Source of the DNA: Ceratodon purpureus
Taxonomy: Eukaryota; Streptophyta; Bryopsida; Pseudoditrichales; Ditrichaceae
Length of the DNA: 64,000 nucleotides
Assembly (NCBI GenBank): GCA_014871385.1
Contig: CM026430.1
Span: 5,748,630-5,812,629, forward strand
Direction of reading: 5' to 3'
Part shown: positions 35,350 to 60,118 of the stretch, in pieces
How the letters are laid out: every line of letters begins with the position of its first letter
Numbering within the stretch: the first letter of the stretch is position 1
The notes under the pieces: generated by a model
The model's input: the letters and a program-made list of their open reading frames with translations, nothing else
What the model was told of the DNA's origin: nothing
Databases searched by the model: none
Translations under genes and position numbers: made by a program

Positions 35350-36947
35350 TTGCCAGTTTCAGCAGCTCGCTCCCGGTTAACAGCTCCTGCACCAACAATT
35401 ATCCAGTCTCACGCCTCCGCCAGCACTGATATTATGGACAGCCCAGCCGGCCCATCCGACATTCTCTCCATTCACTGTTTAGCAGTCGAGGTTCTCCCGC
35501 TGCCTACCGCACGCCGACTCCTACCCAAGGAGCGTTCTGGGCGACTACATTCTCAAGTCCCTTCACCGACTCTGGAGAGGCAGCCCCCATCTGAGCCTCG
35601 TCCAGCGCCATCTCATCAGTCAGCATTTATTGAGTTAGGGTTAGGTCATGTGGGGAGCCCCTCGGGTCATCTTTCCCCTGCAGCTCTGGATTGCTCCCTT
35701 TTGCGCCCTCCGCAACCCCAATTTTCTCCGTCTGCGAGCGCTCCGGATTGCCCACCAATCCTTCTCCGCCGACCCGACAGTAGTCGAGATAGCGCGGCCT
35801 GCATCACCACCACCTCGCGCAGTGCTTGCTCAGATTCTCTAGGTGGTCTTCGGGGCGCAACCCCGCATGGGCACTCGGCCTCTGCTCGATCCGAGGCAGG
35901 CCTTTCTCCGACAGCCCTAGCACCGTCGTTACCAAGACCTCCACCGCTCCAGTTCCCTCGCTCACGCCACCAACAGCGACTGCTTCCGCAGCCCTCAGGT
36001 CCAATTTCTCCTTGGTTCTCTACTTTTCGAGCGTCCCCTGTTCATGGTCTTTCAACCGGTTGTCGTGTTCCCGCTACCGCCGCTTCTCGGGTTGCTACGC
36101 CCTCGACTTCTAGGGTTTTTCCAGGGTTTGTTGTTTCTGTGAAGAGCGAGCCGGGCTTACCCGCGTCTGGTGCTGCTCAGCACCACAGGGGAGTTGTTTT
36201 CAGTTGCGCCCCCACGTCGTGCTCATTGTTTTGCCGCCACTCTGAGTCTCCGAAGTTGCATGTGCCTGCACGACCGACAGCGCAGTTCCCGCCCTCGGTT
36301 GGAGAACCTCCGTGCGCCACCAACCTCCAAACAGCCTATAGCGCCTTCACCGCATCACCTTCAGGTACCTTTTCGGATTGTCTCGACTTTCCGGTCCACT
36401 GCTCGCAGCTTTTCGACTGTGCCACGTCTGTCCCGCCACAGGTCACGCAGTTGTCTCGTCGTGCTTACTGCACACGGCCTTGCCGACGGGCTACCCGGGG
36501 GACGTTGGAACGTAATTTTTCTCGAGGTGGGCTACCTCGAGCAGGCAGCGCTGAGTCGATGGAGATTGGCGGCCCCAGTTCTCAGCCAGTCGACACACCC
36601 GCTATGGCGGGAGTTGCCGCCCCTCCACCGGAGCCGATGTTGGCACCTGCCCTGCCACCTGCGCCCACACAGCCGACTGAGGCTATGGAAACAGTTACAG
36701 TCACTTTACCCGAGCCGACATTGTCACCTGCCCCGCCAACTGCATCCAACCAGCCGACTGCGGCTCTGGCGGCAGTTACACACCCGACGACAGCCACCGA
36801 CCCGACACCCCCCGACCAGACGCGAGGCGCCAAGCGGAAGTTCACAGCACTGGATGCGCGGATTCCGAAGACTGTCCGCATCCAACGGAACCTCCATCGT
36901 CGACTAGACATTACATTCGAAGCACATACCCAGTGGGAAGCATGGAG
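35350..36947 (+). CDS. Retrotransposon accessory ORF3, 5' part (split by the MULE)
   Basis: Long Pro/Ser/Arg-rich open frame after pol, without stops for about 530 codons. It is low complexity with many PPP and SxxP runs, and ends shortly after entering the nested MULE (stop TAG at 36958-36960 lies in transposon DNA). Its frame agrees exactly with the frame downstream of the MULE across the duplicated AGCATGGAGAG. Therefore 35350-36947 and 52778-54916 were one ORF before insertion. Function unknown; see the 3' part. Confidence 0.6.
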
Positions 36948-36949
36948 AG
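36939..36949. repeat. MULE target-site duplication, left copy
   Basis: AGCATGGAGAG, repeated perfectly at 52777-52787. Length 11 bp is within the 9-11 bp typical of Mutator-like elements. Confidence 0.85.
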
Positions 36950-37016
36950 GGGAAAGTTAGCATGTGAGCGGAGAGCGGAGAGCGGAGAGCAGAGAGCAGA
37001 GAATGGAGAGCAGAGA
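36950..37016. repeat. MULE left terminal inverted repeat
   Basis: Begins GGGAAAGTTAGCATGTGAGC, then GGAGAGC/AGAGAGC hexamer-like repeats. It pairs with the right end, whose reverse complement starts GAGGGAGACTTGTATGCGAG and continues with the same GAGAGC series. Near-perfect over about 35 bp, imperfect at the tip. Confidence 0.8.
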
Positions 37017-37621
37017 TTTGACATTTAGCCAAATTTTTTAAAGCAAAGTAAACCCTATAACCGTGGAAAGAAACTAAAAAAAGGTAAGGTTTTTTTACTT
37101 TTTTTAGTAAAGGAGCGTATTCCCGTGGAATTCAGGATTATGTCTGGTAAAAAATTTTTTACGTTTTATTTTTTTGGTACAAATTAGGGCTGATGTCATG
37201 ATGACGTCATCCATACAATCCTTCAGATTTGGTCCCTTCTTGGATCTAGATAGGAGTATTCCAGCATCATGTTCTTAGATCACAACATTAAATATTTAAT
37301 AGAAAAGTAAAGGGAAAAAAAAAATCACAAAAGCTAAAGTTTATGGTCTGAAACCTTAAACTTTATGGTCTGAAAGCTAAAGTTTAAGGTATGAAACACT
37401 AAATTTTGAGCATTTATTTTATAACATTTCTCTCTTCGTGTTATATTTTGAGCTTCACAGTTGGCGTTTCATCCTTTACATAACCCGAGACGAATTGGAA
37501 ATGAGAAACATAACTACTTTAAGATGTTTGGAGTAGAGTAGATAAAGGAATAGGCAATGAACTCCAATTCAATCAAATCAAATCAAATGCAAACAATGAA
37601 AGACCGAAGCCTCGTTCAAAC
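37017..37621. other. MULE subterminal AT-rich region
   Basis: No gene. Two CCGTGGAA motifs (37060 and 37122) recur in inverted orientation near the right end (about 52573), suggesting conserved subterminal sites. A repeated TTTATGGTCTGAAA motif lies at 37340-37375. Confidence 0.5.
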
Positions 37622-40600
37622 TCACAATATGCTAGAATCACTACTTCCACCCTCAGAACTAGATGACTCGGAATCTCCTTCTACCGCCTCGTCATCGACG
37701 AATATCAGAGCCCTAGGATCAAAAGTAGTTGGCCGACTAGGAACATATGTGAGGGCTCCAGATTGAAACGCCTGTGCTAAGTCCTCCGCGTACTCCGGAA
37801 GTACAAAAGGCTGTATCGGGCTGGAATGAAGACGCCACGATGGAGTGGACACTGATGTTGGCCCACGTGGCGGTGTTGCCGAAACTACTCTGCAATAGAA
37901 AACCGATTGTGGTTAGATTGAATACGTAGAGGTGCAAAGAGAAGAAATGCTTGGAGAATTTGAACAAAGAATAGAAGACTTACACCACTTATCAGGTCTT
38001 CTTGCTCTCTTTGGAGGCGCTTCGTCTGCTGCTGCCGGCCTAGGATGTTTAGGAGGGCCCATGGCAGATGACGTAGCCATATACGGTTTGAGAAGGGCGT
38101 TGAAGATTGCTTCGTCCTCCTCACAAGCTATAATATGACGACCAATACTCTGGCAAGCCTTGAGGGAGGCACCTGAAAACACGTAGCATAGATAAGTAGT
38201 GAGTTCCTGTAGAGAAAATCAGAGGATTGGAAATGCAGAAACTGATATTGGAGGATTACCTGTTCCCGCCGACCACTCGAAGACTATGTCACCGGGCTTA
38301 GTCATCTCCTCAATGATGCCCTGCATCATCTCAGGGGCTTTCTCCCTCGGGCCTCTCCACGGCACCTCTCCATTCATGAGCTGCGAGTTTAGCTGGGTGA
38401 AGTTAAGAATGGCATCACTCTCGGTAATGTGGAGGTCGTTGTGAACGACATCGGATTTCTTCGTTTGAAATGAAAACTTGGATGGGGGGTTACCACCACG
38501 AATGAAGACGCGCACCCAGAATCGAAGAGACTGCGAGAAACAACAATGTGTAAGTGCAATTAAGAAGATACCTTAGTAGAATTCAAAGACAAGCAAAGAT
38601 TATGATGTACATACCAAGGAGCCGGGCATCGTTGGGTGAGCCAAGCCTAGTCCATTGAAGCCCCACCAGTCTCGGTGCTGCACGAAGCCATCCTCAGCAG
38701 CAACTTCGGAAATCTTCGAAGCGAGACGTTGGTCGTTGTTGTGGATGATGCAGAGAGCACCATCAAACTGCAAGAAATGTCTTGCGAATTCGAAGAGGTC
38801 ATCCAAATAATCCTTGCCGCGTTTGTTCCACGGCGGAGGGACGTAGGCGGGATTGGATATGGTGGGGACCGGAAGATTCTCAGGAATGTCGGCAATGATC
38901 AAGTCGAATCCCAAGTGATTCTCCAGTTGGCATCTCTCAGGAACTCGGCTGTCGCGGCCTCCTCCAAACTTGAATAAACAAGAAATCAGAGTTAGAAAAT
39001 ATAAGGATTACAGAATATCAGGATTCAAGGGAAAGAATGAAATAACGAATCATACCATTCGAATGATGTCTAGAGCCTTGTTCCATTCGGGATCGCCACC
39101 AACGTCTTCAAGTTCCTTGTGTCGGGATAGAACCAAAGGCACAGAGGAGTTGATGACATAAACCTGCGAGGAATTGAGAGTTCCAGCCGAAGAGGTACTC
39201 TGTGGGAATGTCTTGGCTTTCCTCTGCTCGAGGAGACTTCTGGTGACCTCAGAAGCACTGATCGAGGAAGGAGCCGGCGAAGAAGCTGGAGTAGGCTTCG
39301 TAACGACAATACCTGGAGAGGGCTCTGGTTCCTTCTGTTTTGGCTGGGAAGACGCCGCACCGGTTTGCTGTGATGCCTCCGACTTAGAACGAAGAGATTT
39401 CAGTCGCCTCCCTCTCCCTTTCTTTGGTGGAGGAGCGGAAGATTGATCCTCCTGTCCTTCGTCTTCGTCTGCACCATCGAAGGAGGCTTCCACCACCACC
39501 TCACCGGCATCGTGTAGCATCTTGACGTCCGCCTCCGAGTCAATAGTGAAACCACCAATACAATCAAGATACCAGCATCCAGCATCCAGGTGAGCAGCTT
39601 TGTACCTTTTTATCTGCTGGGGAGAGTACATACATTGGTCCGATGTTGTCTGCGTCCAAAGCTTGAAGTACTTGGGGAGCTGCTGAACGCTGATGGCTCC
39701 CTTCAAAATAAGCTCTCGCTTGAAGTACCTAAGGTAAGACATATAGAAGGTAAGTATTTGCAATGAAAATTATGAAATGGAAATGCGAGTAAGTTACTTC
39801 ACGTACCGGTAAGTAACCCGCTTCACAACTTCAGCGGTTCCAGGGAATTTTGCGAAGTCGGACTTTTTGTCGAAGTGGTTAACAGCCTTTTTTCCAATGA
39901 ACGTAGGGAAGGCCTTGTCCCACAAGAGAATACGTGAACTCTCGACAAAATCGCCCGGCTGTTGGACATCAGGAAATGCCATCCAATTGATGTCGAGGTT
40001 CTCCCTTTTGATTACGTCCTCGACTTCGTAAATGACGGCTTCCTCCAACTGTAATACAAAAATCATATAAGTTGCAACCAAGAAGGTATACGGTAAAAAA
40101 ACAAGGAAATAATGAAACGAAAAGGATTTTGAATGGAATGTACCCCAGCCCAGAATGAAGCCTTGTTCAACCATGGGTCCAGTTCGGTGTCTTTGAATTC
40201 AGATGGCAGAAATCTGTAAGACGTTCGAGCAGTCGGGGATGAGTTCCACCACTTCAACCAACGAGCCTTGTATTTGGCCTCAACGGCGGCTGGAACAAAC
40301 CTCTGAAGCTTTTCGAGCGACATCTCAGGCTTATTATTGAGACTGTAATGGCGATTGATCTGCAAGAAGCACCGAAGATTTTAAAAGGATTAGTACAGAA
40401 ATTATTGAAGACAACCGAAACAGTGAATGGAACAATGTCCAGTGAGTCACCTCATTGAGGAAGTCGTCACCATTCTTGGGATTTGCGATAGCCAAGTACT
40501 TGGTAAAGTCCTTCTTCTTGATGGCTTCGACCATTCTATCCATTGCCTCATTCATGACATCCCAAACTGCACTTGCAGACTGCTCATTCTCGGGTGTCTT

Positions 40601-43600
40601 CTTGCGATAGGCATTGGCTGCTTCATCGGAGGCCGCAGCAAGTTCCCGCTGTAGAAAGATAATTAAGGCTTAGGAAATTTCATGAGTATCGAATAATAAG
40701 AAGCAAATAGAGAGAGGAGGTAGGACTTACTCGGTACAGAAATGCGATGAATACTTTTGTTGTCAAGGGAAACCAGGAGGGATTAGGTGGCTTGTTCTTC
40801 AGACATGCGTCATACTCCTGAGGACTGAGGAGGTCTTTAAATTCCTCCAGCTTCATCATTCCGAAAGAGCGGATTCGAAATAGTTTGGCGGGGAGATTAC
40901 TCTTCACGTAGTCATTCTCAGTCGACCTGAAAATAAACCACATTACGTATGATGAATAATGGAGATGAGATAAAGTAACAGATTGAATAAGAGGAACAAA
41001 TGGAACAAGTATTTACCAGTTGATGTCATGCATTGCGTGAAGAAGACTGCCAACATGGCCACGGGGGTCGAGGACTATGCAGTGCACAGATATGTGCCAT
41101 GACGGGTCGTCTGCATGATGCTTGTTGATATGACGAAGCCATGCTGAGAGGCGATGGTTACCTTCCCAGACAAAAAACATCTTCCCCGAGAATTGCGACC
41201 ACTCCTCGTCACTTTGAAGCTCAAATTCAAAGGCATCATTCGCGTCCCTCCATAATGGGCTCCATCTAGCCATGACATCATCCGTAACATCTCTTGTCTG
41301 CTCTTCGTTGTTGTACATGGAGATGTACATGACGCGGTCGCCATCTCTATACCCCTTCACGAACTCTTGCTCCAAATGCTGTACCCCCACTTCGCCAACT
41401 GGTCTAACCTTTGCCATTGGGATCATCCTGCACAGGGGAACTGTCATTCGGGACTTCTGCGATGGCTTGATCCTGAGCTTGTTGATGACGGCGTTGGAGT
41501 CAATCTTGTACTGGGTGCGATGTTCCAATTCCCCTTCCGTAGCAGTCTTCAAGTTTATCGGACAAGATGGTTTCACCAAAACATCTTGTGTTTGCGTAAC
41601 CTGCGAGGGGGTGCGCAAATTAGGAAAACAAGCACAATCGAAGAAAGTCATGCAAAGTAGACAAGTATGTAAAAGAAAGTAACAATATATCTTCATACTG
41701 TCATCTCTCTTTTAACAACTCAATCATCAATCGTGATTGATAAAACTATCTACGTGAGGATCGACTATAGTACTCCTTAGACTGTCTACAGTTCCAGTGA
41801 CGGCGCCTCCTCCAAAATCGCCTGGTCTGTTGGACAGGGCACGGCAGAATTGCCGGCAGAGCAAAGACAACATGGGCTGGCCTCCTGACTCGAATCGGCG
41901 AGGAAGGAGAGGGTGGAGACATCGGCGGAGAGCCCTGTGGAGGAGACGAAGGCATATAGCCCGGGGAGGTTGGCTCATAAACCGGGGATGTAGGCATGTA
42001 CACTGGAGATGTAGGCATGTACACTGGCGACGTAGGCATGTACTGAGGAGAGTGGACCTCGAGAGGTCCACTTTCCACACCTACAGGGTTGGCTACATCA
42101 CAGGTACAATAAGGCTGATCAAATGAATCCGAAAGATCGGAAACATTGATCACAGAAATGGGGGAAGTAGCAGACATCTCAGGAGCATCGGATGATACCT
42201 AGAGTAGAAGAAATGAAGTGAGGATTAACTACAATTTGTAGAGGAGTAGGAAACAAAGATGGGTATAAGCCGAATAGAACTCAAATTCATAAACATAAGA
42301 AAACATTAGAAATTGAAAATTGAATGAAATACCTCAGTTTCCGCAGGCGTCGGGTCTTGACGCTCGCTCCCCAGATGATCTCCATCAGAGTCCTTAATCA
42401 CAAACAACGTTATAATTATTATAAAAAACAGCAAATATGTAAAAACAAACCACAAGCGCGAAACAATGAATTGAAAATTAAGAAAAACAAACATTAAAAT
42501 AACGTATACCATTCCAACCGAATTGAAATCATCAACATTTTCAATGAGCAAAATACATTTAAATGAACAAAATAACTCAAAGAAAAGAAAAAAAAAAACA
42601 AAACTTTGCAAATCCCGAAATTCCACCCCACCCTCGCGGCCTACTGTCGTTGACGACAGTAGGTTTGCGGGGCATTTTTTAATGTAATTTTTAATAAAAA
42701 CCATTAAAAAGCATAGAACAATTAAAAAACATTCACAATTTAAACATTCACATTTCTGAGGAAAAGCACGTTTAATTAGCATAAGAAATCAAAGAAAATA
42801 TAAAATAAAAAACAAATTGAAAAAATCCCCAAATTATCCCCCCCCTCGCGGCCTACTGTCGTTGACGACAGTAGGCTTGCGGGGGTTTTTTTTTCTAAAT
42901 ATTACAAAAAAATTCATTAAAATGCCCAAACAAATTCAGAATCATTAAAATTCGCATCACTAATTTGTGACGATAATCCCTTTAAATTAACAGAAAAATT
43001 CAAAAAAAAAAAAAAAAAAAAACAAATTCCAAAAATCCCCAAATTATCCCCCCCCCTCGCGGCCTACTGTCGTTGACGACAGTAGGCTTGCGGGGGGTTT
43101 TTTTTTATAATAAAACAAAAAAATTCATTAAAATACCCAAACGAATTCAGAATCATTAAAATTCGCATCATCAAATTGTGAGGATAATCCCTTATAATTA
43201 AAAGAGAAATTCAAAAAAAATTTAAAAAAAAAACAAATTCCAAAAATCCCCAAAATATCCCCCCCCCTCGCGGCCTACTGTCGTTGACGACAGTAGGCTT
43301 GCGGGGGGTTTTTTTTTATAATAAAACAAAAAAATTCATTAAAATACCCAAACGAATTCAGAATCATTAAAATTCGCATCATCAAATTGTGAGGATAATC
43401 CCTTATAATTAAAAGAGAAATTCAAAAAAAATTTAAAAAAAAAACAAATTCCAAAAATCCCCAAATTATCCCCCCCCCTCGCGGCCTACTGTCGTTGACG
43501 ACAGTAGGCTTGCGGGGGGTTTTTTTTTTAATAAAACAAAAAAATTCATTAAAATCCCCAATCAAATTCAGAATAATTAATATTCGCATCATCAAATTGT

Positions 43601-46600
43601 GAGGATAATCCCTTATAATTAACAGAGAAATTCAAAAAAAATTAAATAAAAAAACAAATTCCAAAAATCCCCAAATTCCCCCCCCCCCCCTCACGGCCTA
43701 CTGTCGTTGACGACAGTAGGTTTGCGGAATTTTAAATTTCTCAAATAAAGAAAAAAAAACATTAAAAAATGTATACCATTCGAACCGAATTGAAAAAATG
43801 TCCACTTTCAATGACCGAAATCCATTTAATTGAACAAAATAACTGAAAGAAAAGAAATAAGAAACAAAAATTTAAAAATCCCCAAATGGACCCTCACCCT
43901 CCCGGCCTACTGTCGTTGACGACAGTAGGTTAGCGGGTTTTAATTTTGTTGAATGTTTTAAAAAAAAACATTAAAAAAACGTTAACCATTTCAACCGAAT
44001 TGAAATTATCATCATTTCAAAGAGCAAAATCCATTTTAATGAACAAAATAGCTCAAATAAAAGAAAAAAGGAACAAAATCTTAAAAATCCCCAAATTCCC
44101 CCCCCCCCCTCGCGGCCTACTGTCGTTGACGACAGTAGGTTTGAGGGGGTTTTTTTTTTTAAATATTACAAAAGAATTCATTAAAATACCCAAACAAATT
44201 CAGAATAATTAAAATTCGCATCACTAATTTGTGACGATAATCCCTTTTAATTAACAGAAAAATTGTAAAAAATTTAAAAAAAAAAACAAATTCCAAAAAT
44301 CCCCAAAATACCCCCCCCCCTCGCGGCCTACTGTCGTTGACGACAGTAGGTTTGAGGGGGTTTTTTTTTTAAATATTACAAAAGAATTCATTAAAATACC
44401 CAAACAAATTCAGAATAATTAAAATTCGCATCACTAATTTGTGACGATAATCCCTTTTAATTAACAGAAAAATTCAAAAAAAATTAAAAAAAAAAACAAA
44501 TTCCAAAAATCCCCAAATTACCCCCCCCCCCTCGCGGCCTACTGTCGTTGACGACAGTAGGTTTGAGGGGGTATTTTTTTTAAAATATTACAAAAGAATT
44601 CATTAAAATACCCAAACAAATTCAGAATAATTAAAATTCGCATCACTAATTTGTGACGATAATCCCTTTTAATTAACAGAAAAATTCAAAAAAAATTAAA
44701 AAAAAAAACAAATTCCAAAAATCCCCAAATTACCCCCCCCCCCTCGCGGCCTACTGTCGTTGACGACAGTAGGCTTGCGGGGGGTTTTTTTTTTTAATAA
44801 AACAAAAAAATTCATTAAAATACCCAAACAAATTCAGAATAATTAAAATTCCCATCATTAATTTGTGAGGATAATCCCTTATAATTAACAGAAAAATTCA
44901 AAAAAAATTATAAAAAAAAACAAATTCCAAAAATCCCCAAATTATCCCCCCCCTCGCGGCCTACTGTCGTTGACGACAGTAGGCTTGCGGGGGGTTTTTT
45001 TTTTTTTTAAAACAAAAACATTCATTAAAATACCCAAACAAATTCAGAATAATTAAAATTCGCATCATCGAATTGTGAGGATAATCCCTTATAATTAACA
45101 GAAAAATTCAAAAAAAATTAAAAAAAAAAACAAATTCCAAAAATCCCCAATTTATCCCCCCCCCTCGCGGCCTACTGTCGTTGACGACAGTAGGCTTGCG
45201 GGGGGTTTTTTTTTAAAAAATACAAAAAAATTCATTAAAATACCCAAACAAATTCAGAATAATTAGAATTCCCATCATTAATTTGTGAGGATAATCCCTT
45301 ATTATTAACAGAAAAATTCAAAAAAAATTTATAAAACACCAAACAAATACCAAAATAATACCAAAGAAATACCAAACAAATTCTCAAAAACATACACAAA
45401 GAAATTTGAATCCAATGTGCCTCATCGGCCCTGCTTCATGGCAGAGCCTCAGCCACAGCAAGGAAGTCAAACACTACACATCAAGCATCACCAGCAAGGG
45501 GACTACCTCGAGCACCGCAGCCATTGCAAGCAAGCAAGCAAGCAACAAGCACCGCAACAAGCTAGCAAGCAAGCAACAAGCACCGCAAGCAACAAGCACC
45601 GCAAGCAACAAGCACCGCAAGCAACAAGCAAGCAACAAGCACCGCGAGCAACAAGCACCGCAAGCAACAAGCACCGCAAGCAACAAGCACCGCGAGCAAC
45701 AAGCAAGCAACAAGCTCCGCAAGTAACAAGCACCGCAAGCAAGCAACAACGCACCACCACCAGCACCGCAGCCATTGCTTCCAGCAGCACCGCAAGCCAG
45801 CAACAGCTCACCCCAAGCAAGCAACAATGAACCGCAAGCAAGCTACAACGCCCACCCAGCAACAAACATCATAAACCCAGAACCCCATTTACCTCGTCCT
45901 CTTCATCTGATTCTCGCGCGGCATCTCCAAATCCTGCAGCTCGCTCAAGCCTCCCATCCGAATCCCGCCCACTCCCGACTCTTCCATCACCTGCTCCTGC
46001 GGATTCCTCCCGGTCGGTATCTCCTCCGACATCGTTGAATCCTCCGGCAGGTTCCCCATCTCCCACTCCCGGCATCGGGTGATCCTCTCGTGCATTGCCT
46101 CGCCCCGCAACGCCGTCCGAGTCGCTCCCCGCCTCCATGATGGCTGCACGAACCCTCCTGGCGCAACCACGCAGCTCGTCTCCCTCCACTCCGTCCACTC
46201 GAAACCTCTGAGAGAACAAACAATGAAGTGGAGAATTACCAAGCATTTCTTTCCAAGGTGTGGAAATCGGATCGGGCCTATCCACTTGAGTGTCTGTCCT
46301 ACAGGCCGGTTCGAAGAGAATCCACCATGCTAAGTTGACTTTTACACTCCAAGCGAAAGATTCAGTTGAACATCCCATCACATTTACCGGCAACTCTCTA
46401 CTGCCAAGTAAACTGGTTACGACCCACACCCACTACGGGTCTCATTTAAGTATTTGATGCCTTCAATTCTCGCGCTTCCCTCCACTACTCGTAACGAAAT
46501 TACCAAGCACCATTATGTACAATCTGACCACTCGATATGGCACGGGTGTCGTTCAGCCATTTACAAGCACTGGACTTCCTTCACTCAATGTACACTACGG

Positions 46601-47207
46601 TACAGTATAAAATCCCTTTACGTTCAATAGCTGGTTCAAGTGTTGAACTTCTATCACTACATACTAAAGTTCAAATGTGTCTAAAATAACTTGATTAACA
46701 TTACATGGTGTTGTTGCCCAACAATATAAAACATTTGCAAAGACAGTGTAGTACACTTACTGGTTCAGAGAGACAATCTTCGTCTGATTGGGAATGCACC
46801 TCCCTTAAGCCAGAGTCCTTCTTCCCAAACGATGGTTGCGGAGACTCTACTCTTTGACTACAATTAAACTCTAATTCATCCGTCATCTCTTCACGTCCAA
46901 CCCCACTTAAGCGAACGTCTTGATCCTGATCTCGATTCTCAACAACGCTGTCCTCAACAACCTCCTCCTTAACCTCCACTATAGATTCTAGGATGAGTTT
47001 ACGTATGCTACAAAACTTTAAGGCTACAGGCAGTCCCTCTCCTCTCCTCTTAACAGGTGCACTCAAATTGTCACCTTTCGTATCTACCTTCTTACGTGAT
47101 GCTCTCCTCTTCCTCGCTCTCCTATTCGTAAAATCGGTCTTACATGGTTTTCTTCTCGGTTTAGGAGTGACATAAGTGGAGGGAGTAGACCCTCCACTAT
47201 CCTTCAT
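37622..47207 (-). CDS. ParB-like domain fused to beta-class DNA methyltransferase, MULE-encoded
   Basis: Fifteen exons with consistent phases: 47207-46761, 46329-46240, 46207-45893, 42392-42333, 42198-41754, 41584-41017, 40926-40731, 40648-40451, 40359-40144, 40048-39807, 39728-39056, 38968-38615, 38530-38260, 38172-37984, 37887-37622; about 1,509 residues. Parts in order: basic N-terminus; acidic Gly-rich stretch; five CTD-like heptads (~355-390); ParB/sulfiredoxin-like domain (~480-640) with [14 protein letters not shown]; Lys/Pro linker; methyltransferase (~1165-1400) with motif [23 protein letters not shown] as motif I, and ACEEDEAIF. The IV-before-I order marks beta-class N4-cytosine/N6-adenine enzymes; ParB-methyltransferase fusions are known in phages and bacteria. 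DIPE departs from the usual D/N/S-P-P-Y/F/W, so activity is uncertain. The exon 5 to 6 join is least sure. Confidence 0.72.
41950..42070 (-). other. Five RNA polymerase II CTD-like heptads
   Basis: Exon 5 of the fusion gene encodes YMPTSPV three times, then YEPTSPG and YMPSSPP, in perfect 7-residue register. The Pol II CTD consensus is YSPTSPS, so only positions 2 and 7 differ. Tyr1, Pro3, Thr4, Ser5 and Pro6 are kept in the first four. Confidence 0.85.
42600..45300. repeat. 13-copy tandem array of ~211-bp units with a conserved 24-nt hairpin
   Basis: Hairpin cores start at 42640, 42852, 43063, 43274, 43485, 43697, 43906, 44116, 44327, 44538, 44750, 44960 and 45171; spacing is 209-212 bp. 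Each core has 10-bp perfect arms (CCTACTGTCG and its complement) around TTGA. It is set between a C-run (CCCCTCGCGG) and a G-run (TTGCGGGGGG), which lengthen the potential stem. The A/T-rich remainder varies, with poly-A length changes and substitutions, whereas the core is identical in all 13 copies. This suggests the core is under selection or homogenised. Confidence 0.95.
45530..45850. repeat. CAAGCAACAAGCACCG-type simple tandem repeat
   Basis: Degenerate units of 15-16 bp built from AAGCAAC and AAGCACCGC. They keep several frames open on both strands (Ser-Lys-Gln-rich on plus, Leu-Cys-rich on minus); those frames are artefacts. Lies inside the long intron. Confidence 0.8.
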
Positions 47208-47806
47208 GTGTCTAAGTAAGCTAATGACCCTCCTCACAATAAAGTACACTATAGAACTTCAGCTCTGCTTATATACTGATCAATCCTAACTAATGGTGAT
47301 CAACTCCTCCCTTCATAATATTAATGATCACTGACATGTACCTCTAACAATGGTCACTGACATTCTACAACTAAAGATATATGCAATTTGAATTAAAGTT
47401 CATGTGCAAATAAATATAATTAAAATTCATCTGGAAATCAATATAATCTTCACTTAAATAGAATTGATGACAAAGGGTCACCCATCACTGAGGCCTGGCC
47501 ATGAGTCCTAGAACAAAAGACGGCTAGAGCTAATCCTAGATATGCTGTCTTCCTCAAAAAATCAAACCACGATCTAAAGTGCTACTGACATGAGTTAATA
47601 TAAGTGTACTTAAATTCTCATTACGGCGCCAGGGTTAACTAACTCTGTCACTTATATTCTAACTAACTTCCGTTACTCGTGATTCAGATTTATTACCTAA
47701 GGTACAACTAGATCTGTATATAATCATTGTACTCGAATTCATCAGTCTCTCATTCTTCTGCACCTTCAGTCGTTTAGTGTCTTATCCCCACACTCTACGT
47801 TTCACA
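47208..47806. promoter_or_regulatory. Divergent promoter region of the two MULE genes
   Basis: About 600 bp between the ATG of the fusion gene (47207, minus) and that of the transposase (47807, plus). AT-rich, without a gene. TATA-like TATATAATCATT occurs near 47718 for the plus gene. Confidence 0.5.
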
Positions 47807-50800
47807 ATGGCGTACGTGGCTCCGCGAGAAGTCCAAGGCACAGTCGTCCTGTATGCTCACGGCCTCGGAGTCCCTCTCTCTTTTCAGACCAGTGCCGATG
47901 GTATGGCTAGCGTGTCCTCCCAGCACCTAAGTATGAGATTCACTTTTAGAGAGGATACAATCAGGGTCGAGGAGGAGATTTTTGACGAGATAACAACTGA
48001 AGTCACTCACACTCTAGGTCAGTTGTCCGAGAGGGGTGAAGATGGAATTCTGTATTGGCACTTGTATCCTGGAACATATAGAGTTTATGGACTTACAGAG
48101 TCGCAGATGCAGACGTCTACTGAGATTCTGACTTCCCGCCGCTCCTCTACTTGCACTGTTGAAACTCCGCTTCCTCGTCACGTGAAGGTCAAGGTAGAGT
48201 CTGGCGTGGATGCTACTGTTCATACTCCGGTCATCTCCCTCTCTTCAGATGAAGAAACTAGTCCTCCTATTTCGTCCCCTCCTGTCACAGAGGACGCTGC
48301 AGAGTCTAGGCCCCCAGTCCCCCCTCCAGAAAAGTGCTCCACTTCCTCTCAAATTTCAGGTTATAGTACTATCAGTATTGTCGATTCACTTCGCAAACTT
48401 GCCGAGAGACCTGGTAGTAAGAACGTTCTGAAGAAACTGAACTACTCCAGAATGCGTCACGAGAGAGTAGGGTACCTGCCTGCCGTTTTCGATGGACCAG
48501 TTCTATTCGAATTACCCCCTGCGGCATTAGGAGCATCGCGGTCGCAGGCAAAGTCCATGCAGGGAATGGACAAACGATACGACGGCCACTTCTGGACCAA
48601 GACCATCACCACCAACATCACCAACGACTTAGGGCTGTCTTTCCGGTCCTCCACCTGTGTCGGATGGCTGCGCTGCATCAACAAAGACTGCCCATTCCTG
48701 GAACGCCGCCCCCGGATTCGTGATGTGAACGAGACTGACTTCGATGGCTGCACACTTCAAGCCTTCAGTGTCAACCTGCCACCACCAAAAGATTCCACGG
48801 TTGTATGCAAGGTATGCAAAGAACCCCCCGCCTGCATTGCTACCTGTGGGGCCCGTATTTTTTACGTGTCTGGTACAGTCAACCAAACGAGGGCGTGTAT
48901 CCATCTTGGAACTCACGATCACCCTGTTAAGGTTGGCGACTACAGAGATTCAAAGGATGAGATCAATAGTTTGATCTCAGAACAGGTCGAGAATACACCT
49001 GGAGCAACAAAGAGCTCTGTGGTGCTGGAGGCGAGCAAGGTTCTCATCGGGAATTACTTGCTACAGCCAGAGGATGCACCTCCCAAGAAACTCACCATGG
49101 AGGAGCTTATTCCAGTCCTTGACAGGTGCAAGGACATGGCATCTCCGAACATTCGCAACAAGGTAATGTCATTCCGTCAGTTGAGAAATTATGGAGTTAT
49201 GGATGCCATAACAAAGCTGCGTGGACTCAGTCTCTGGGCATATGTCCAAGAGAACAAATTCCCTGGCCAAGGAAAAGATCTCGACAAGGTCTTCCTCTTC
49301 AAGATGTCGGAAGTGGGTCCCGGAAGCGGTGTCGACCTCGTGTCCAGGATGCAGCCCGGCGGTGATCTCGAGAATTCCTGGGTGATGTTTGACCACGTCA
49401 AGCGGGTACGCGATTGGACCACGTTGGCATGCCACGTGTACGACTCCACGTACTGCCGGGTCATGACGATTGCTACCTGTGACATGATGTCCGAGGACTG
49501 CGATGCCCAGATCCTGTTTTGGAGAAACCTAAATGCTGTCATGGAGAGGAATGGCGTTGCAGCGCCAAACTTCAAGGGCTTCATGGCGGACAGCGCACAG
49601 GCCAACTGGAATGCAGTACGGATCGTGTACGGGACAGGGAACAAGGAGGACCGCATGGAGGATCGGGAGAGGACCTGCCTATTTCATTGGACGCAGTCCA
49701 TGGTCAATAATACTGAGAAGTACATCCCTGAAGAACTGTGGGAGCAACACAAGAAAATGTGCCAGCAATACCGGGCAGCAAAAACAATGGAGGAGGCGGA
49801 TACTCTCTACCTCGCAATCAAAGGTTGGTGGGTTTCTACTGGAGCTGTCTCAGAGAAGGCCCTTGCTAGATTGGACCTCTGGCTTTGTTTCTGGCACTTC
49901 CGATTTCGCCAGTGGGGCGGCTTCATGACTGAGGTACCTTTTTTTTCCTTACTCATTCACTCCGTTTTCTACTTCGCAGTTACCCCACCGCACTGAATGC
50001 CGAACCACATCTAACCAGTACTACCCTTGAATGTACAGAAATTTACTGAGGATGAACTTGCAGAAATGCCTACGTGTAACCTTGCTGAAACTGTTCACAG
50101 CAAATGGCTTCAGTCCTCTGGTAACAAGTGCGCCGACCTCTACGTGGCTACAGTTGATGACTACGTTCGGGCATTTCTTCAAGTTGTCAACTTCTACCAG
50201 TTTCTGAAAGGGGAAGTTGGAGGGACGGGTCCATCCAAGAAGGAACTGAAGCTACGAGCGGCAGAGCGCAGAGCGAAGTTCACAGGGAGACCGCATGTGC
50301 TTAAAGACCCCATGTTAGAGATGCCTGGAGCAGAGGAGTTCTGCACACGTCTGCCACGCCTAGCTGGAGAGGAAGTCTTCGGATCGATGAAGCGGAAGCC
50401 CGACCTACCCCTTGGAGCTGAGGAAGAATCTCACCGTCCAGACAAGGTAAACTACTCCCATCCAAAAGCACCTGGTCGTAATGTCAGGGCTCGCATCTCC
50501 CAGATGCCCATCATTGTCGAGGATGACACCGAAGATGACACGCAGGTCGACGAAGGCCAGTCTCCTACAGAGATTGCCGTGACAATTCCAGAGACCCCAC
50601 GAAACGAGATCGGGATCCGCCAGGTGAATGCAGTTCAGGAGTCCAAGGTTGACGTCAAGGAATGGCACATTGCAAGATTGTTGAAGACTTCTGCAAAGTG
50701 CTGCTGGGCCCAGAGAGCTGTCACTAAGAAGAAATGTACGGAGAGAATTGTGAGGAACGTGAACGCTACTGCTGCACCTACCTACACAGGAGTTTGGACC

Positions 50801-51532
50801 AACATCCGCCGGAATACTTCGGAGAGGACGGAATTCTTCTTCTGTTCTGACGACATCGAAAGGTGCGTGAAGGGCTCAAGGCGCAAGTGGGTTGCTAAGT
50901 ACTCTGCAACCCAGGAGATGCCTCCAGTTCCAGCCGTCTGGCCTGTCAAGCTCGGGACAAACCTGAACATCACAGAAATTCGTGCACTAGAGGCGGCTGG
51001 ATTCCAGCTCCCGGAGAAGAAGCCGGTCTCCCCACGTCGCCTCTTCTCCTCCGCTCCGCCACCTGCAAATCTAAGTTCCTTGCCAGTTCCTACAGATGCT
51101 GACCGCTACCCAGGCAAGAGAGACGGGAAGATGGTGAAGCGCACTGCCACTCGCCCTAATCCGCCGCAGCGACTCTCCATGGGCTCCTCCGACACCCTCA
51201 GAGCTCGCCTCCGTTCTGTCACCATGATACCTCATCCTGGCCATGGTTGCATCATCGGGTTGGATTCCGGCATTCCACCTAATGTCTCTCACTACCAGAT
51301 CACCATCAGCTCCAACCCTGGTTGCAGTTGCCCAGCATTTCGGAAGACCATGACTAAGTTTCGTGGGCGGGTCCAATTCTCCTACTGTAAGCACGTTTAT
51401 TTCATCCTATTGAAGGTTTGCAACCGCGATCCCGACGATGACCTTTTCATCCACGCGCCTACCTATAGCTTCAACGAGGTCAAGATACTTCTCGAAAGCG
51501 GAATTCTGACACACCCTTCAGCAAGAAACTAG
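47807..51532 (+). CDS. Mutator-like transposase with SWIM zinc finger
   Basis: Two exons, 47807-49933 and 50039-51532, joined in phase 0 (GAG|GTACCT to GTACAG|AAA); about 1,206 residues. ATG 47807 is the first good start. An N-terminal Cys region (about residues 280-380: CVGWLRCINKDC, CKVCKEPPAC) resembles MULE zinc modules. The MULE DDE core follows: HVYDSTYCRVMTIATCDMM, then GFMADSAQANWNAVR with the second Asp, and CLFHWTQSM. Near the C-terminus (about residues 1110-1160) lies a SWIM finger, GCSCPAFRK and FSYCKHVYF, giving C-x-C...C-x-H. MULE core followed by SWIM is the classic MURA/FAR1-type order. It lies inside the element with matching TIRs and 11-bp duplication, so it is probably the mobilising enzyme. 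Confidence 0.85.
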
Positions 51533-51832
51533 GGGGCAGGCTACTTTTAGTCCATGTTCTTTCACGTGGACAATGGCAACTAGGTTGCAAAGTAATTGCT
51601 ATTTGAATTATTCTCTGTATCGAATTAGCAAAACGTATTTGTATTGTTTTTTTTAATATATAGAGTCCCACTATTCACATTGATTGACACGCCTAGTAAT
51701 TGGTCCAACTAATAATGCAATGCATGTCACATTACTATATTCGACCACTTGTACCCTCACTCCGTTAAGCACGGAAATATTATAGTAAATCATCACTTTA
51801 ATTCAACCAAGAAACTGCTGCAAATAGCTACT
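51533..51832. other. 3' flank of the MULE transposase gene
   Basis: About 300 bp, AT-rich, without a coding frame. Confidence 0.5.
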
Positions 51833-52276
51833 TCATTCCCTGTACTTAATGCGTTTAGTTTTGCCCTTTGCATGCTCAGCATATCTACCAATATCAGACT
51901 CTTGTACTTGAGAAACTACATTCTTGTCCATTTTGGGCACTCCCAAACCTAGGTAGGGACGTTTCAATAATGGACTACTCCCACTTGACCCTTTAACTGC
52001 GTCCCTCGAATAAGTCCCAGGTGGGATCTTCCCAACCTTAGAGTATGCATGAGCTGGCAGCGTCTTCTCCACCTCGTCCTCAACCACTATGATCTCCCTA
52101 GGATCTCGTAACACTGAAGGGTCTGTTCCCAACTCCACTCCAACATCCACGACCTCCGGAAGTGTAAGTGCTTCGCCACATCCAAATAGCTCGTCTTCCC
52201 CCTCACCCTCCACGTAAGGTTGAAACGGGCACACAACATCACCAAGGGAAACAGCAACCACCTCGATGTCCTCCAT
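51833..52276 (-). CDS. Hypothetical acidic protein near the MULE right end
   Basis: An open minus-strand frame of about 147 codons from ATG 52276 (an upstream ATG at 52294 is also possible). It is acidic in the first half (EGEGEDELFG, DPREIIVVEDEVEK) and basic at the end (GKTKRIKY). No family recognised. It has coding-like composition in otherwise AT-rich DNA and could be a third MULE gene. Confidence 0.4.
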   Translation of the reverse strand: MEDIEVVAVSLGDVVCPFQPYVEGEGEDELFGCGEALTLPEVVDVGVELGTDPSVLRDPREIIVVEDEVEKTLPAHAYSKVGKIPPGTYSRDAVKGSSGSSPLLKRPYLGLGVPKMDKNVVSQVQESDIGRYAEHAKGKTKRIKYRE

Positions 52277-52696
52277 AATCGAGGATCGGTACAAAACAGA
52301 AGTGTCCCTTACACAAAACGAAAAGAATGCGGAAATGAAGAAGACATCCCTCTCACCTTGAACTTAAATATCTTAAGGCATTGACTTGGCGCCCTAAGAT
52401 CACGGGCATGGCACCAGACACCAACATTCATCAGACGGGATGGGATCAATAACAAGCAGAAATTTACAGGAATGCGTCAAATTTACTGTCCACCACCAAA
52501 AATATTTAAAACAATAAAACGGTAATAGGATCAAAATGTCATATATTTCCCTGAATATTTGAAAAAATTCCACGGTCATAGGTCTTAAATTCAGCTTTTA
52601 ATAGGTAACAGTCGGGGAATATTCTCAGAATATTCCAGATTTCTAATTTTAGTGTCTAATTTTAGTAAATAAAGTACTGTTTTTAGATTTCAGACT
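52277..52696. other. MULE right subterminal region
   Basis: No gene. TTCCACGGTCATAGG near 52567 is the inverted counterpart of the CCGTGGAA motifs at the left end. Confidence 0.45.
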
Positions 52697-52776
52697 TCAT
52701 TTTCTGCTCTCCGCTCTCCAAATCTCCGCTCTCTGCTCTCCGCTCTCCGCTCTCCGCTCGCATACAAGTCTCCCTC
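52697..52776. repeat. MULE right terminal inverted repeat
   Basis: CTGCTCTCCGCTCTCC-type repeats ending GCTCGCATACAAGTCTCCCTC, the inverse of the left terminus. Immediately followed by AGCATGGAGAG. Confidence 0.8.
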
Positions 52777-52787
52777 AGCATGGAGAG
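52777..52787. repeat. MULE target-site duplication, right copy
   Basis: AGCATGGAGAG, identical to 36939-36949. The reading frame of the interrupted ORF3 is the same in both copies. Confidence 0.85.
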
Positions 52788-54916
52788 CCTTAGCCGATGA
52801 CGATTGGGCAGCCGACACGAGTCTACAGGTATTTTACAATTTCCATTGGCCCGACCCTCGGCCTGAGTTAGTCTTGGATTTTGTGGATGGCTTTGAGTAT
52901 ACTCCGCAGCCCCGAGGCACCAGACGCGCTCCCGGTGAGCAGACTATCCGGTCAATGGTTCGGGGCAAACCAGTCGAGATCACAGCTTATGTGATCCGCA
53001 TTGCCTTGGGGTTCGAGGAAGGCACCAGCTTACTTGGTCAGAAGGTAGGCTTTGGATTCCATGAGCGTTACTCACAGCTCGGGCTGACGGAGGCCGATCA
53101 TGCACATGATGGTAACCGAGTGACAGCATTACCGGAAGCCTACCAGGTACGTGTGCGGGCGTTAAGTGACGCCATCGGGTTCAAGCAGCGGTTTCTTTTT
53201 GTTAGCAACGATCTGGTCGAGCACATCTTGGCAGCAGAGAAGGCCGGCCGTCGACAGCGCACCTTCCACTGGTCCTATTTTGTCCTGGCCAATCTGCGCC
53301 GTCATTTGATCTACCTCCACTCTCAGCCGGGGGAGCCACGTCGACTTCGTGGCGCTGCTGTCATCGATGCTATCCTATCCTACTGGTTTCCAGATCGAGA
53401 GGGGGTCACCGACCCGCCACCAGTGGAATCTAGCTACGACACGATGGATGGTAGCCACGAGGGCATCCCTGTTAGTCCACCGCCCATTCACCCTACCGCT
53501 GCCCAGCTTCGGGATCGGACCAGTGGCGATGGTCACCGCCCGACACTAAGTACCTCGGCCGACCTAGCGGACACCGACCCGACTTCCCGGTCACAGGAGG
53601 GTTCTTCTGATGTCGGCCGTCCCACCCGCCGACTCCTCCGACACGGACAGCACATTCGCCAGCTCGCTTTCCCGAGCTCCTCTCCGACCCAGCGGACTCC
53701 GCCCCGACGATCTGCTGCCCATGACATTCCAGCATCGCCAAGTTGCAGGTACCCGCTCCGCTCCCGCAATATTCCACGCCGGTATCGTGAGGTATCCTCT
53801 GAGCCCGATCTCTCGGGTGCTCCCCTGGCTGCGGCCGCTGCGACACCCAATTCTATCATTCAGCTGGACAGCTCCACCGGTACTCCACCCGACCCACTCT
53901 CTCTGCTACCAGCATCCCCCTCACGGCATACAGTAGATTGGGCTGTTGCATCAGTACAGCCAACTACCGCTGTCTCCGGCGCCGAGACCCAAGCCTCAGC
54001 TCCAGCGGACTGCGCTTCGCCCCCTCAGTTCATGCCTGCACTACCACCCATGGACCTCACCGTTTACTGTGACCAGGTTCGACCCACGGCTCCAAGGGCG
54101 GCCCCAGCGCAGCCTTCCACTGGCGCCAACACCGACGCTGCGATTCCTTCTGCTCGTGCTGGCCACTCGTCTGAGACAGCTCCCGCACCACGCCGACCTG
54201 CGGACCCGACTCAACCTCTTCACCAGCACCAGGCTCAACCTCCGGGTTCGCCTCCTACACCTCCACTCGGCTGTGCTCCGACCCCAGACCTCCAGGTTGT
54301 TCTTCACAACCTTCAGGCCATCGCCAACGCCTTGGTCCAGACCCGTACCGCCGCTCAGCAGCTTGAGCACAGCCGGCAACAGGTGGCCACGGCAGTCGCC
54401 GACCGTGACCTCTAGATCCATCAGCTTCACCAGCTGGTTGCCGCCCGAGATTCTGCTCTACAAACTCTTACAGCAACGCATACTAGGTTGCTTAGCGATC
54501 ATACCGACCTTCAGCAACAGGTACAGGCCTTACAGGCCGACCTGGCTGCCCGAGTCCCGGTCGCACCACCAGCTACACCATCGATTCGTAGGTTGGAGCT
54601 AGAGTCTACCATCAGCGCCCGTCTCCAACAGGCTAACATTCTCTTACTTGAGAATCAGTAGTTGAAGACGGAGCTAGCGTTGCACACTCTTCAGCCCCGG
54701 GAACTCAGCCGTGCTGTGAGGGATTATGCTGCTACCAAGCAGCGGGATTTGGAGACTGTGTTGACTGCCTACAGAGCCGACTTGGATCGTCAGCACCTTT
54801 GGTTGTCCAAGTTTGAGGCGCGCGACCCGACCTTCGAGCCCTGGCTCGACACCGACGACCCGACTTCTGCACTCCCGACCGAGGCGCCGCCGACTGTACA
54901 CCAGCCGACTGACTGA
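52788..54916 (+). pseudogene. Retrotransposon accessory ORF3, 3' part
   Basis: Continuation of the ORF at 35350-36947. A globular region of about 200 residues (VFYNFHWPDPRPELVLDFV, SMVRGKPVEITAYVIRIALG, YFVLANLRRHLIYL) resembles the 'putative plant transposon protein' (Transposase_32-like) domain seen after pol or beside gag in some plant Gypsy elements; this is from memory of the pattern. Next comes a Pro/Ser/Thr-rich spacer, then heptad-rich coiled coils (QAIANALVQTRTAAQQLE, DLQQQVQALQADL). In-frame UAG codons at 54413-54415 and 54659-54661 interrupt it; coding continues in frame after each until TGA at 54914-54916. Confidence 0.6.
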
Positions 54917-55097: not shown

Positions 55098-55556
55098 TGT
55101 TAACCGGAGATTCCCAAATCTCCCCTTCCCTTAGTTCCCCTTAGTCTCTTTACAGTTTTCATCCTTACCTTAGACAGTCATCCAGTCGACTTGGATGAAC
55201 TCTGTCACAGTCGACTGGATGAATTCTGTCACCAGCCGACTGGATGAACTCTGTCACCAACCGACTGGATGACTTCCGCCAGTTCAGGAGGTTTAAGAGG
55301 CAAGGTTAGGGTTTCCTGTAATCATTCTACACTAGAGCAGGTAGAGTCAGAGAGGTTTGAGAGCTGTTAGGAACTGCTGTACCATGTGTTTGGGGCTGTT
55401 TTGACCCATTTTATGCAGTTTTGACCTCTTTTTGCACTTGTATTATACATTTCCAGCAACTTATGAGTGTTTGGAGCACTTAGCTTAGTTGGGTTTTGTT
55501 GGGTTTTGATGGGATTGTGAAGGCTAGGGTTTAGTTGGTAAATCCTCCCTTTACCA
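55098..55556 (+). repeat. 3' LTR
   Basis: 459 bp. Nearly identical to the 5' LTR but 25 bp longer, with an extra copy of the GTCGACTGGATGAA-type repeat near 55205-55270. Other differences are a few substitutions, so the insertion is fairly young. Confidence 0.88.
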
Positions 55557-55579
55557 TGTGCTGAACTCGTTGGAAAGAT

Positions 55580-56321
55580 GGGGGGGGAGAGCACAATAAA
55601 GTGGACCACAAAGTGCAAAATGTGACCACTAACAAGTGAATATGAAGTGTGCTGTTTTTTAAGGCTCAAAGCTGATTTTGAGGATTTTGGTGTAGTTTTT
55701 GAGCATTTTAGTCGCTTTCTAAGGTGTCATAAGGTATCTTACACACACCTTCATAAAAAGAACATTCTGAATTGAAACTAAATTTGACCACTACTTCTAA
55801 ATCATGAAAATGAACTTTTCCAAAGTCTTGATTTCTTCATTTGGGGCCCTCTATTGTCTTTAGATGATGTTTTTTTCAATTTAAAAAACAATGTTCAGTG
55901 AAAAAAAAGTGACAGAAAGTATCGCGGAAGATACCCTCTTAAAAAGCATCCTTGCGATACTTTTGGAACCCTAAATCAATCAATGAGTATATGAATTGAC
56001 TATTTTAGAATACCTCTTAAACATATGGAGGGCCCCGCAAAATTAAAAGTGATTTCGGACAAAACCCTAAACCGTTTTGTTCACTTTTCCAAATGAGGCC
56101 ATTCACTTTGCCCGAGTTCGACGTCTCCGTTTTCCATTCTAAACTCAATGTCTTCTCCCGCAACTTTGAGAAGTTGAAGAAGATCAAGTCTACTTTCCGT
56201 ATCCCAAACTTAATCTTGCATCGACATAACATAGATCCCACTTTCTCTAGTGTTATCGGAAGGGGCTGAAATTGGTGAAAAGATAAGCACTTTTTTGGTT
56301 CACTTTATTATGCTTCCCCCC
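55580..56321 (+). repeat. ~735-bp repeat, copy A, with its own inverted ends
   Basis: Starts GGGGGGAGAGCACAATAAAG and ends ACTTTATTATGCTTCCCCCC, so the unit has ~20-bp terminal inverted repeats. A second copy, about 70 percent similar by eye, lies in opposite orientation at 62326-63059. Confidence 0.8.
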
Positions 56322-56404
56322 TGGGATGGACGCTGTTTCCATGCATTTCTGTATCAAACGTAGAACCTATTTCCAATTGTTGGAATGATTTAAATGCCTT
56401 GATA

Positions 56405-58900: not shown

Positions 58901-59219
58901 AAACCAAAATAAAATAAAATATAAAAAGGTGAAAATAATAAAGAAGACGTGAATACTTAGAGTAGATTAAAACCGAATTAAAGGACAGAAGTAATTAAAC
59001 AGAAGTTAATGGGTACAAAAACCTTTTTAAAAACGGGATGTTCATAACAGATTGAGGAAAAATACAAAATGGGAGAGGTATTAAGATTCCAAGAAATATT
59101 AGGAAATCGTAGAGATGATATAAGTAATTAAATTAAATTAAAAACAAAACAAATGAGAAGAATATAAAAAATACATTAAAAAGATAGAAAAAGCTGTAAA
59201 AATTAAGGGGATGAGTAAG

Positions 59220-60095: not shown

Positions 60096-60118
60096 AAATC
60101 TGCTCCAGGGAATGACTG

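What the first reader, a model, noticed from the sequence alone, without database searches (positions are those of the whole stretch)
37622..47207. Plant Mutator-like transposon carrying a ParB-DNA methyltransferase fusion gene
Seen: a 15-exon minus-strand gene whose exons join in phase. It encodes a ParB/sulfiredoxin-like domain ([11 protein letters not shown]) followed by a beta-class methyltransferase (LIIADIPE, then [13 protein letters not shown] and ACEEDEAIF). It lies inside an element with TIRs, an 11-bp target duplication and a MULE/SWIM transposase. Known: ParB-methyltransferase fusions occur in phages and bacteria; N4-cytosine methylation by a bacterial-type enzyme has been reported in Marchantia sperm; Arabidopsis VANDAL MULEs encode sequence-specific anti-silencing proteins (VANC). 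Inferred: this MULE family carries its own modification or anti-silencing factor. I know of no described plant system of this kind.
Basis: partly seen in the sequence, partly recalled or inferred. Interest (0 to 1): 0.93.

Follow-up and report, generated by a model that had tools for sequence, protein, structure and literature searches.

The report
Jumping gene with ParB-like protein, palindromes
A large jumping gene of a eukaryote carries its own bacterial-looking ParB/methyltransferase-like protein together with a row of identical DNA palindromes that may be that protein's landing strip; this matters because it could be a new way for a jumping gene to recognise and protect its own copies.

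Summary
The window holds a 15.8-kb TIR element (36950-52776) with an 11-bp target duplication; joining its flanks restores a reading frame of the host retroelement. It encodes a transposase candidate and, divergently, a gene with a ParB/sulfiredoxin fold followed by an N6/N4-methyltransferase-like domain. The genome could be searched once: a 26-bp palindrome lying in the gene's large intron occurs 398 times; the first 100 places form 16 loci, and 16 of 16 hold this gene or its remnant. Against the other subfamily all seven exon groups show dN/dS 0.09-0.53. Best explanation: a VANC-like, sequence-specific factor that loads on its own intronic palindrome array, with a ParB fold and a probably inactive methyltransferase domain, and keeps the element unsilenced. 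Binding and anti-silencing are inferred, not shown.

The parts
36950..52776 (.). whole transposable element (about 15.8 kb) nested in an LTR retroelement
   Evidence: TIR alignment; taking it out with one TSD copy restores the retroelement ORF
36939..36949 (+). left target-site duplication AGCATGGAGAG
52777..52787 (+). right target-site duplication AGCATGGAGAG
36950..37016 (+). left terminal inverted repeat with GAGCGGA-type 7-bp repeats
   Evidence: similar TIRs at other copies
52703..52776 (-). right terminal inverted repeat
46761..47207 (-). exon 1 of the ParB-MTase gene: basic N-terminus, 149 aa
   Evidence: ATG and frame kept in 11 of 11 rows, GT at the donor in 11 of 11 (GTAA in 10, GTTA in 1); dN/dS 0.26-0.39 against nine diverged rows, one further row nearly identical; no Pfam family
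42333..42392 (-). exon 2 (acceptor uncertain by a few bases)
   Evidence: conserved in 12 of 12 rows; frame fits
41754..42198 (-). exon 3: YMPTSPV heptads like the Pol II CTD, basic end
   Evidence: dN/dS 0.05-0.10 in 11 comparisons; Rpb1 repeat PF05001 E 0.00097, 19.7 bits vs cutoff 20.3; its join to the ParB exon is a model
41017..41600 (-). ParB/sulfiredoxin-fold exon (first base 41600 or 41584)
40731..40926 (-). core exon 2, linker
40451..40648 (-). core exon 3, linker
40144..40359 (-). core exon 4, linker
39807..40048 (-). core exon 5, linker
39056..39728 (-). core exon 6, linker with low-complexity end
38615..38968 (-). MTase exon with DIPENLPVP at the motif IV place
   Evidence: 15 of 15 family sequences; profile score 30.5 vs at most 21.3 for 100 shuffles
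38260..38530 (-). MTase exon with motif X/I ([13 protein letters not shown])
   Evidence: PF01555; hhalign probability 97.7
37984..38172 (-). MTase exon after motif I (ACEEDEAIF)
37622..37887 (-). last exon, acidic tail
42558..45355 (.). tandem array, about 13 units of 211 bp, in the first intron; 13 copies of CCTACTGTCGTTGACGACAGTAGG
   Evidence: 27 invariant columns, next longest run 8, 0 of 20000 permutations; 398 exact 26-mers genome-wide, reversed control 0
47807..49933 (+). transposase candidate, exon 1
   Evidence: no Pfam family; transposase found at 12 of 16 other array loci
50039..51532 (+). transposase candidate, exon 2 with C-terminal SWIM-like stretch
   Evidence: SWIM E 0.014, 15.4 bits, under the curated cutoff of 19.6

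Best explanation
This is a Mutator-like DNA transposon that carries a self-targeting chromatin factor and its target. The accessory gene makes a protein with a ParB/sulfiredoxin-fold domain, a linker and a beta-class methyltransferase-like domain that lacks the catalytic aromatic residue. The target is the array of palindromes, about 20 helical turns apart, in the gene's own first intron. Proposed working: the protein binds the palindromes on every copy of its family (and possibly spreads from them, as ParB does from parS), and so keeps the region between the two divergent genes open against host silencing, as VANC proteins do for VANDAL elements. Shown: element, TIR/TSD, family, gene, purifying selection, fold of the ParB part, array, its association with the gene. 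Inferred: that this protein binds this array (about 0.65); that the methyltransferase domain is inactive (about 0.75); that the outcome is anti-silencing (about 0.45).
For: Palindromes and gene occur together at 16 of 16 loci formed by the first 100 of 398 places; two of these are internal-deletion derivatives that keep palindromes and only a stub of the gene. 165 of 182 palindrome cores are perfect, 15 have one and 2 have two changes, while the rest of the 211-bp units in the window averages 79% pairwise identity. The 19 substitutions are never compensated on the other arm and none hits the 364 CpG dyads: this looks like recognition of DNA sequence. dN/dS of the ParB exon is 0.18-0.30 in 11 comparisons. 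Window against the other subfamily: exon 3, ParB exon and core exons 2-5 are close (dS 0.12-0.27), exon 1 and MTase core exons 7-8 far (0.58-0.78), so parts next to the array were exchanged between subfamilies. VANC21 motifs form tandem repeats in the VANC21 intron (PMC5735166, passages).
Against: No binding, expression or methylation data. Physical closeness of array and ParB exon explains their joint inheritance without binding. The exchange is not simple: copy C1:18478000, near-identical in the core exons, is as far from the window in exon 3 (dS 0.18) as the other subfamily is. No HTH domain, the part that reads parS in bacterial ParB (recalled), came up in the Pfam scans. The search for family members without the array or with another one did not complete, so covariation is untested. 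Pfam lists no VANC domain (DUF1985, DUF287; names) for core protein, exon 1 or exon 3. 298 of 398 palindromes were not examined.
Confidence: 0.5

Rival explanations
1. One reading: the methyltransferase is active and marks the element with 4mC or 6mA, the ParB part giving sequence specificity.
For: Profile match of the motif X/I part, GTG of motif I kept, and purifying selection on the MTase exons (dN/dS 0.25-0.56 where there are substitutions). 4mC by a bacterial-type enzyme is published for bdelloid rotifers (PMC8885841, passages).
Against: The motif IV place reads DIPE in 15 of 15 sequences; 11 of 11 full-length phage enzymes that I fetched have Y or F there (one C-terminal fragment left out; 12 of 335 hit records fetched). 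In rotifer N4CMT the change of SPPY to APPA abolished 4mC (PMC8885841, passages). FxGxG is S- or N-x-G-x-G here.
Confidence: 0.13
2. The protein is a transposition helper (MURB-like role) and the array a synapsis or cutting enhancer, not an anti-silencing device.
For: Gene and array stay with the element at 16 of 16 loci; a copy complete between its TIRs but without transposase keeps the array.
Against: The array is internal in the window, about 5.6 kb and 7.4 kb from the ends, not subterminal; no functional data either way.
Confidence: 0.2
3. The array acts as RNA: hairpins in the intron feed or block small-RNA or splicing machinery, and the ParB-like protein has nothing to do with it.
For: The palindrome folds as an 11-bp RNA hairpin at -19.0 kcal/mol.
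Against: Of 17 changed cores among 182, 16 have changes in one arm only and 1 in the centre; none is compensated. Few events, so weak.
Confidence: 0.12
4. Captured gene carried as passive cargo (Pack-MULE-like), with a satellite that expanded by chance.
For: MULEs often take up foreign DNA (PMC6446971, passages).
Against: Purifying selection on the exon groups between subfamilies and presence at 16 of 16 array loci.
Confidence: 0.05

Closest known systems
VANDAL21/VANC21 (Arabidopsis MULEs with anti-silencing proteins)
   Same: MULE-type element; extra gene beside the transposase; short motif in tandem repeats in the intron of the extra gene; repeat number varies between copies
   Different: No VANC domain by Pfam; TIRs and TSD present; a 24-26 bp palindrome instead of a 9-base motif; ParB fold and MTase-like domain; no functional data
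Bacterial ParABS (ParB and parS palindromes)
   Same: ParB-N/Srx fold; palindromic candidate target
   Different: Eukaryotic transposon; no HTH family found; ParA not searched for; CTP binding untested; 24-26 bp instead of 16 bp
Phage/bacterial beta-class N6/N4 methyltransferases (DpnA, CcrM, phage MTases)
   Same: Order motif IV place then X/I; sequence hits
   Different: DIPE instead of DPPY/SPPY; introns; eukaryotic genome; ParB domain in front
Retrotransposons with captured DNMTs (Symbiodinium, Klebsormidium)
   Same: Eukaryotic TE carrying a DNA methyltransferase gene (PMC5890265, abstract and passages)
   Different: C5-cytosine DNMT in retroelements; no ParB domain or target array in the passages seen
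Bdelloid N4CMT
   Same: Bacterial-type amino-methyltransferase domain in a eukaryote with an added domain (PMC8885841, passages)
   Different: Host gene with SPPY that acts against transposons, not a transposon's own gene

Membership tests
Mutator-like element (MULE) | Terminal inverted repeats | tested here: met
Mutator-like element (MULE) | 8-11 bp target-site duplication | tested here: met
   Window 11 bp with restored ORF. Six of six further copies with both ends held: matches of 10, 10, 10, 10, 11 and 13 bp; the 13-bp match runs into the TIR end, and in the copy with 11 bp the right TIR end is degraded
Mutator-like element (MULE) | MULE transposase with DDE core and SWIM | tested here: inconclusive
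   No MULE model hit; SWIM 15.4 bits under cutoff 19.6
ParB/sulfiredoxin fold | ParB-N/Srx fold | tested here: met
ParB partition protein | HTH domain binding parS | tested here: inconclusive
   no HTH family in Pfam scans of the core protein, exon 1 and exon 3
ParB partition protein | CTP binding and sliding | not testable with these tools
   GNHR in place of ParB's GERR (GERR recalled)
N6/N4 amino-methyltransferase | Pfam PF01555 at curated cutoff | tested here: met
   27.5 vs 26.7 bits, 56 residues only
N6/N4 amino-methyltransferase | catalytic [DNS]PP[YFW] motif IV | tested here: not met
   DIPE in 15 of 15; register from a weak profile alignment
N6/N4 amino-methyltransferase | Rossmann fold of the whole domain | tested here: inconclusive
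   only one exon could be folded, pLDDT 49; search uninformative
VANC anti-silencing system | VANC protein domains (DUF1985, DUF287) | tested here: not met
   neither listed for core protein, exon 1 or exon 3 at E up to 10
[quoted passage not shown] the gene's intron | tested here: met
   that the array is intronic rests on exon 1 and 2 conservation, not on transcripts
VANC anti-silencing system | loss of DNA methylation on expression | not testable with these tools
   no expression or methylation data

The most novel reading that the evidence does not exclude
A ParB/parS-like system at work in a eukaryotic transposon: an element-encoded ParB-fold protein loads on a phased array of palindromes inside its own gene and spreads over the element, with a dead methyltransferase domain as a DNA or chromatin reader, to evade silencing in trans for all family copies.
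Probability: 0.3. Interest if true: 0.95.

Novelty: new variant of a known kind. Interest (0 to 1): 0.86.

Why it matters
If the protein binds the array, this is a second, differently built solution to what VANC does in Arabidopsis: a transposon recognising its own copies by a short DNA code kept in tandem repeats. It would put a ParB-type fold to use in eukaryotic chromatin, and show how a methyltransferase domain can be kept under selection without its catalytic residue. The palindrome is so constant and specific (398 exact copies, reversed control 0) that binding, ChIP and methylation tests are straightforward.

Tried and rejected
Whole core protein as a query found no relative at E 0.01; exon-sized queries found 66 and 3. 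Three scans of viral contigs (ParB exon, its alignment, palindrome) gave no relative. Phage tblastn with the ParB exon gave one hit at E 3. AlphaFold of one MTase exon alone was poor and its PDB search meaningless. ParB and MTase as two genes: rejected on nine short in-phase introns and on all ten core exons in order in six of 11 regions; the other five are cut by the stretch held or truncated (C1:18443000 shows no exons 9-10, C1:26392000 nothing after part of exon 6). A split between exon 3 and the ParB exon is not excluded: the in-frame join is one choice of donor and acceptor, and copy C1:18443000 has a stop just before that donor. Stops in aligned core exons: 2 of 11 regions and 3 of 5. 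First-stage exon near 46140 set aside. Array units picked by a flank probe: 35 of 144 had no core within 75 bases, most of them in three copies (C1:14058000, C2:1095000, C3:15816000), which nevertheless hold 12-14 palindromes each; not resolved. The two copies with identical or nearly identical gene (C2:3170000, C3:150000) are 99.0% alike over 7.4 kb but 91.5% over 5.8 kb on the transposase side, so they are mosaics. CpG: the palindrome's lack of CpG change rests on few substitutions and may be constraint only. Rfam: no match at gathering threshold. Species not identified. Literature: searches (open-access library; listings, plus passages of six papers) showed no ParB-methyltransferase gene in a eukaryotic transposon; the 15 papers listed do not contain ParB.
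Full report
WHAT IS THERE. The window (G000:C10:5748630-5812629 of an unnamed 362.5-Mb assembly) contains an LTR retroelement (LTR pair 26926-27360 / 55098-55557, 93.5% identical; gag, RT, RNase H and integrase by Pfam). A second element has inserted in its 3' ORF: it runs from 36950 to 52776 between TIRs and is flanked by AGCATGGAGAG. Joining the flanks with one copy of the duplication gives a continuous reading frame (...[23 protein letters not shown]...). That fixes the element ends.

GENES. On the plus strand two exons (47807-49933, 50039-51532) encode a 1206-aa transposase candidate; Pfam gives only SWIM at 15.4 bits, under its cutoff. On the minus strand ten core exons from 41600 to 37622 join without a stop, nine introns of 78-96 bp. 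Three upstream exons (47207-46761, 42392-42333, 42198-41754) are conserved between copies; exon 1 has dN/dS 0.26-0.39 against nine diverged rows (one further row is nearly identical) and exon 3 0.05-0.10 in 11 comparisons. With a GTAGAT donor at 41753 and an exon start at 41584 all 13 exons read as one 1374-aa protein. This junction is a model; one copy has a stop just before the donor. I could not confirm 15 exons.

METHYLTRANSFERASE PART. PF01555 passes its cutoff narrowly; PHROG 3008 'DNA methyltransferase' at 6e-11; hhalign against 11 phage enzymes gives probability 97.7 over 67 columns, score 88.8 against at most 21.8 for 100 shuffled queries. The exon with the motif IV place aligns weakly (score 30.5, probability 28, against at most 21.3 for 100 column shuffles), which puts DIPEN on [13 protein letters not shown] is identical in the window, three metagenomic relatives, eight genome copies and three more: 15 of 15, across about 47-100% identity. 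The 11 full-length phage enzymes have Y or F at the last place (one fragment left out). In rotifer N4CMT the SPPY-to-APPA change abolished methylation (PMC8885841, passages). I therefore expect no catalysis, though a changed chemistry is not excluded.

ARRAY. Between exons 1 and 2 lie about 13 units of 211 bp (spacing 209-212), each with CCTACTGTCGTTGACGACAGTAGG, perfect in 13 of 13; expected by chance 0. In the unit alignment 27 consecutive columns are invariant, the next longest run is 8, and 0 of 20000 column permutations reach 27; pairwise identity outside averages 0.79, minimum 0.60. Genome-wide the exact 26-mer occurs 172 + 226 times, the reversed control never. The first 100 listed places form 16 loci; I fetched a stretch at each of the 16. 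The gene lies beside the palindromes at 16 of 16, two being internal deletions with only part of the first core exon and of the tail. The transposase was seen at 12 of 16. Of the other four, C1:26392000 is complete between its TIRs and lacks it, C3:312000 has the transposase-side TIR but nothing matching between it and the array, and for the two deletion derivatives I held little flank. Of 182 cores 165 are perfect; allowing up to 6 mismatches adds none. The 19 substitutions are 18 in the arms and 1 in the centre, none compensated, none in the 364 CpG dyads. The other 298 palindromes were not examined.

FAMILY AND ACTIVITY. Six further copies for which I held both ends have TIRs and flank matches of 10 bp or more, e.g. 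CGAATGGTTG and CGATCCTCAT. Copy C2:7957000 encodes a protein identical to the window's over core exons 1-9 (971 aa) and has 10 palindromes against 13; C2:3170000 and C3:150000 have dS 0-0.003 between their genes at different target sites, but their transposase sides are only 91.5% alike. So movement and exchange both look recent. Stops were seen in aligned core exons of 2 of 11 and 3 of 5 regions.

SELECTION AND MOSAIC. Window against the other subfamily: dN/dS 0.09-0.53 over the seven exon groups (core exons 2-5 pooled); against the near-identical copy C1:18478000 the last exon gives 1.36 on very few changes. dS is uneven: exon 1 0.58-0.78, exon 3 0.12-0.18, ParB exon and core exons 2-5 0.17-0.27, exon 6 0.37-0.45, MTase exons 7-8 0.60-0.74, exon 9 0.27, last exon about 0.2. 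So segments were exchanged between subfamilies. C1:18478000 is as far away in exon 3 (0.18) as the other subfamily, so the exchange is not one simple block.

HOW IT MAY WORK. VANC21 of Arabidopsis VANDAL21 binds a short motif that forms tandem repeats in introns of VANC21 and VANB21 and upstream of the transposase gene, and causes loss of methylation (PMC5735166, passages; PMC10398659, passages). The element here has the same plan with other parts. ParB proteins nucleate on parS and spread with CTP (starts of abstracts in a listing). I propose that this protein recognises the palindromes and opens or protects its family's elements. Binding and effect are inference. The methyltransferase domain most likely serves as a DNA-, SAM- or partner-binding module. 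Exon 3 has Pol II CTD-like heptads (PF05001 just under cutoff), which might recruit transcription factors; that is speculation.

VERDICT. Observation good; the 'modification' reading doubtful; the 'anti-silencing' reading strengthened by an array that the finding does not mention. The plan is known from VANDAL; protein and target type appear new within the searches listed.

Noticed in passing
41754-42198: Exon 3 encodes heptads [14 protein letters not shown] like the RNA polymerase II CTD (PF05001 E 0.00097, just under cutoff); copy C1:26392000 has two more.
   Followed up: partly
26926-55557: Ty3-like LTR retroelement (LTRs 93.5% identical) interrupted by the element; the piece of its extra 3' ORF that was scanned (52787-54412) has no Pfam family.
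   Followed up: partly
55582-63059: Second element-like pair of 0.74-kb inverted repeats (78% identical) enclosing a Ulp1-like protease (sub-threshold) and its own 183-bp tandem array at 59414-60088.
   Followed up: no
17144-19177: Minus-strand ORF with strong DUF7869 match (E 2.7e-44).
   Followed up: no
37622-47207: Uneven synonymous divergence along the gene between two subfamilies, pointing to exchange of segments.
   Followed up: partly
41601-41753: Stretch just upstream of the ParB exon is highly conserved between copies although it is probably intronic.
   Followed up: no
L002:610-2231: In Klebsiella phage vB_Kpn_F14 a ParB-family gene lies directly before a DPPY methyltransferase gene, a possible unfused counterpart.
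   Followed up: no
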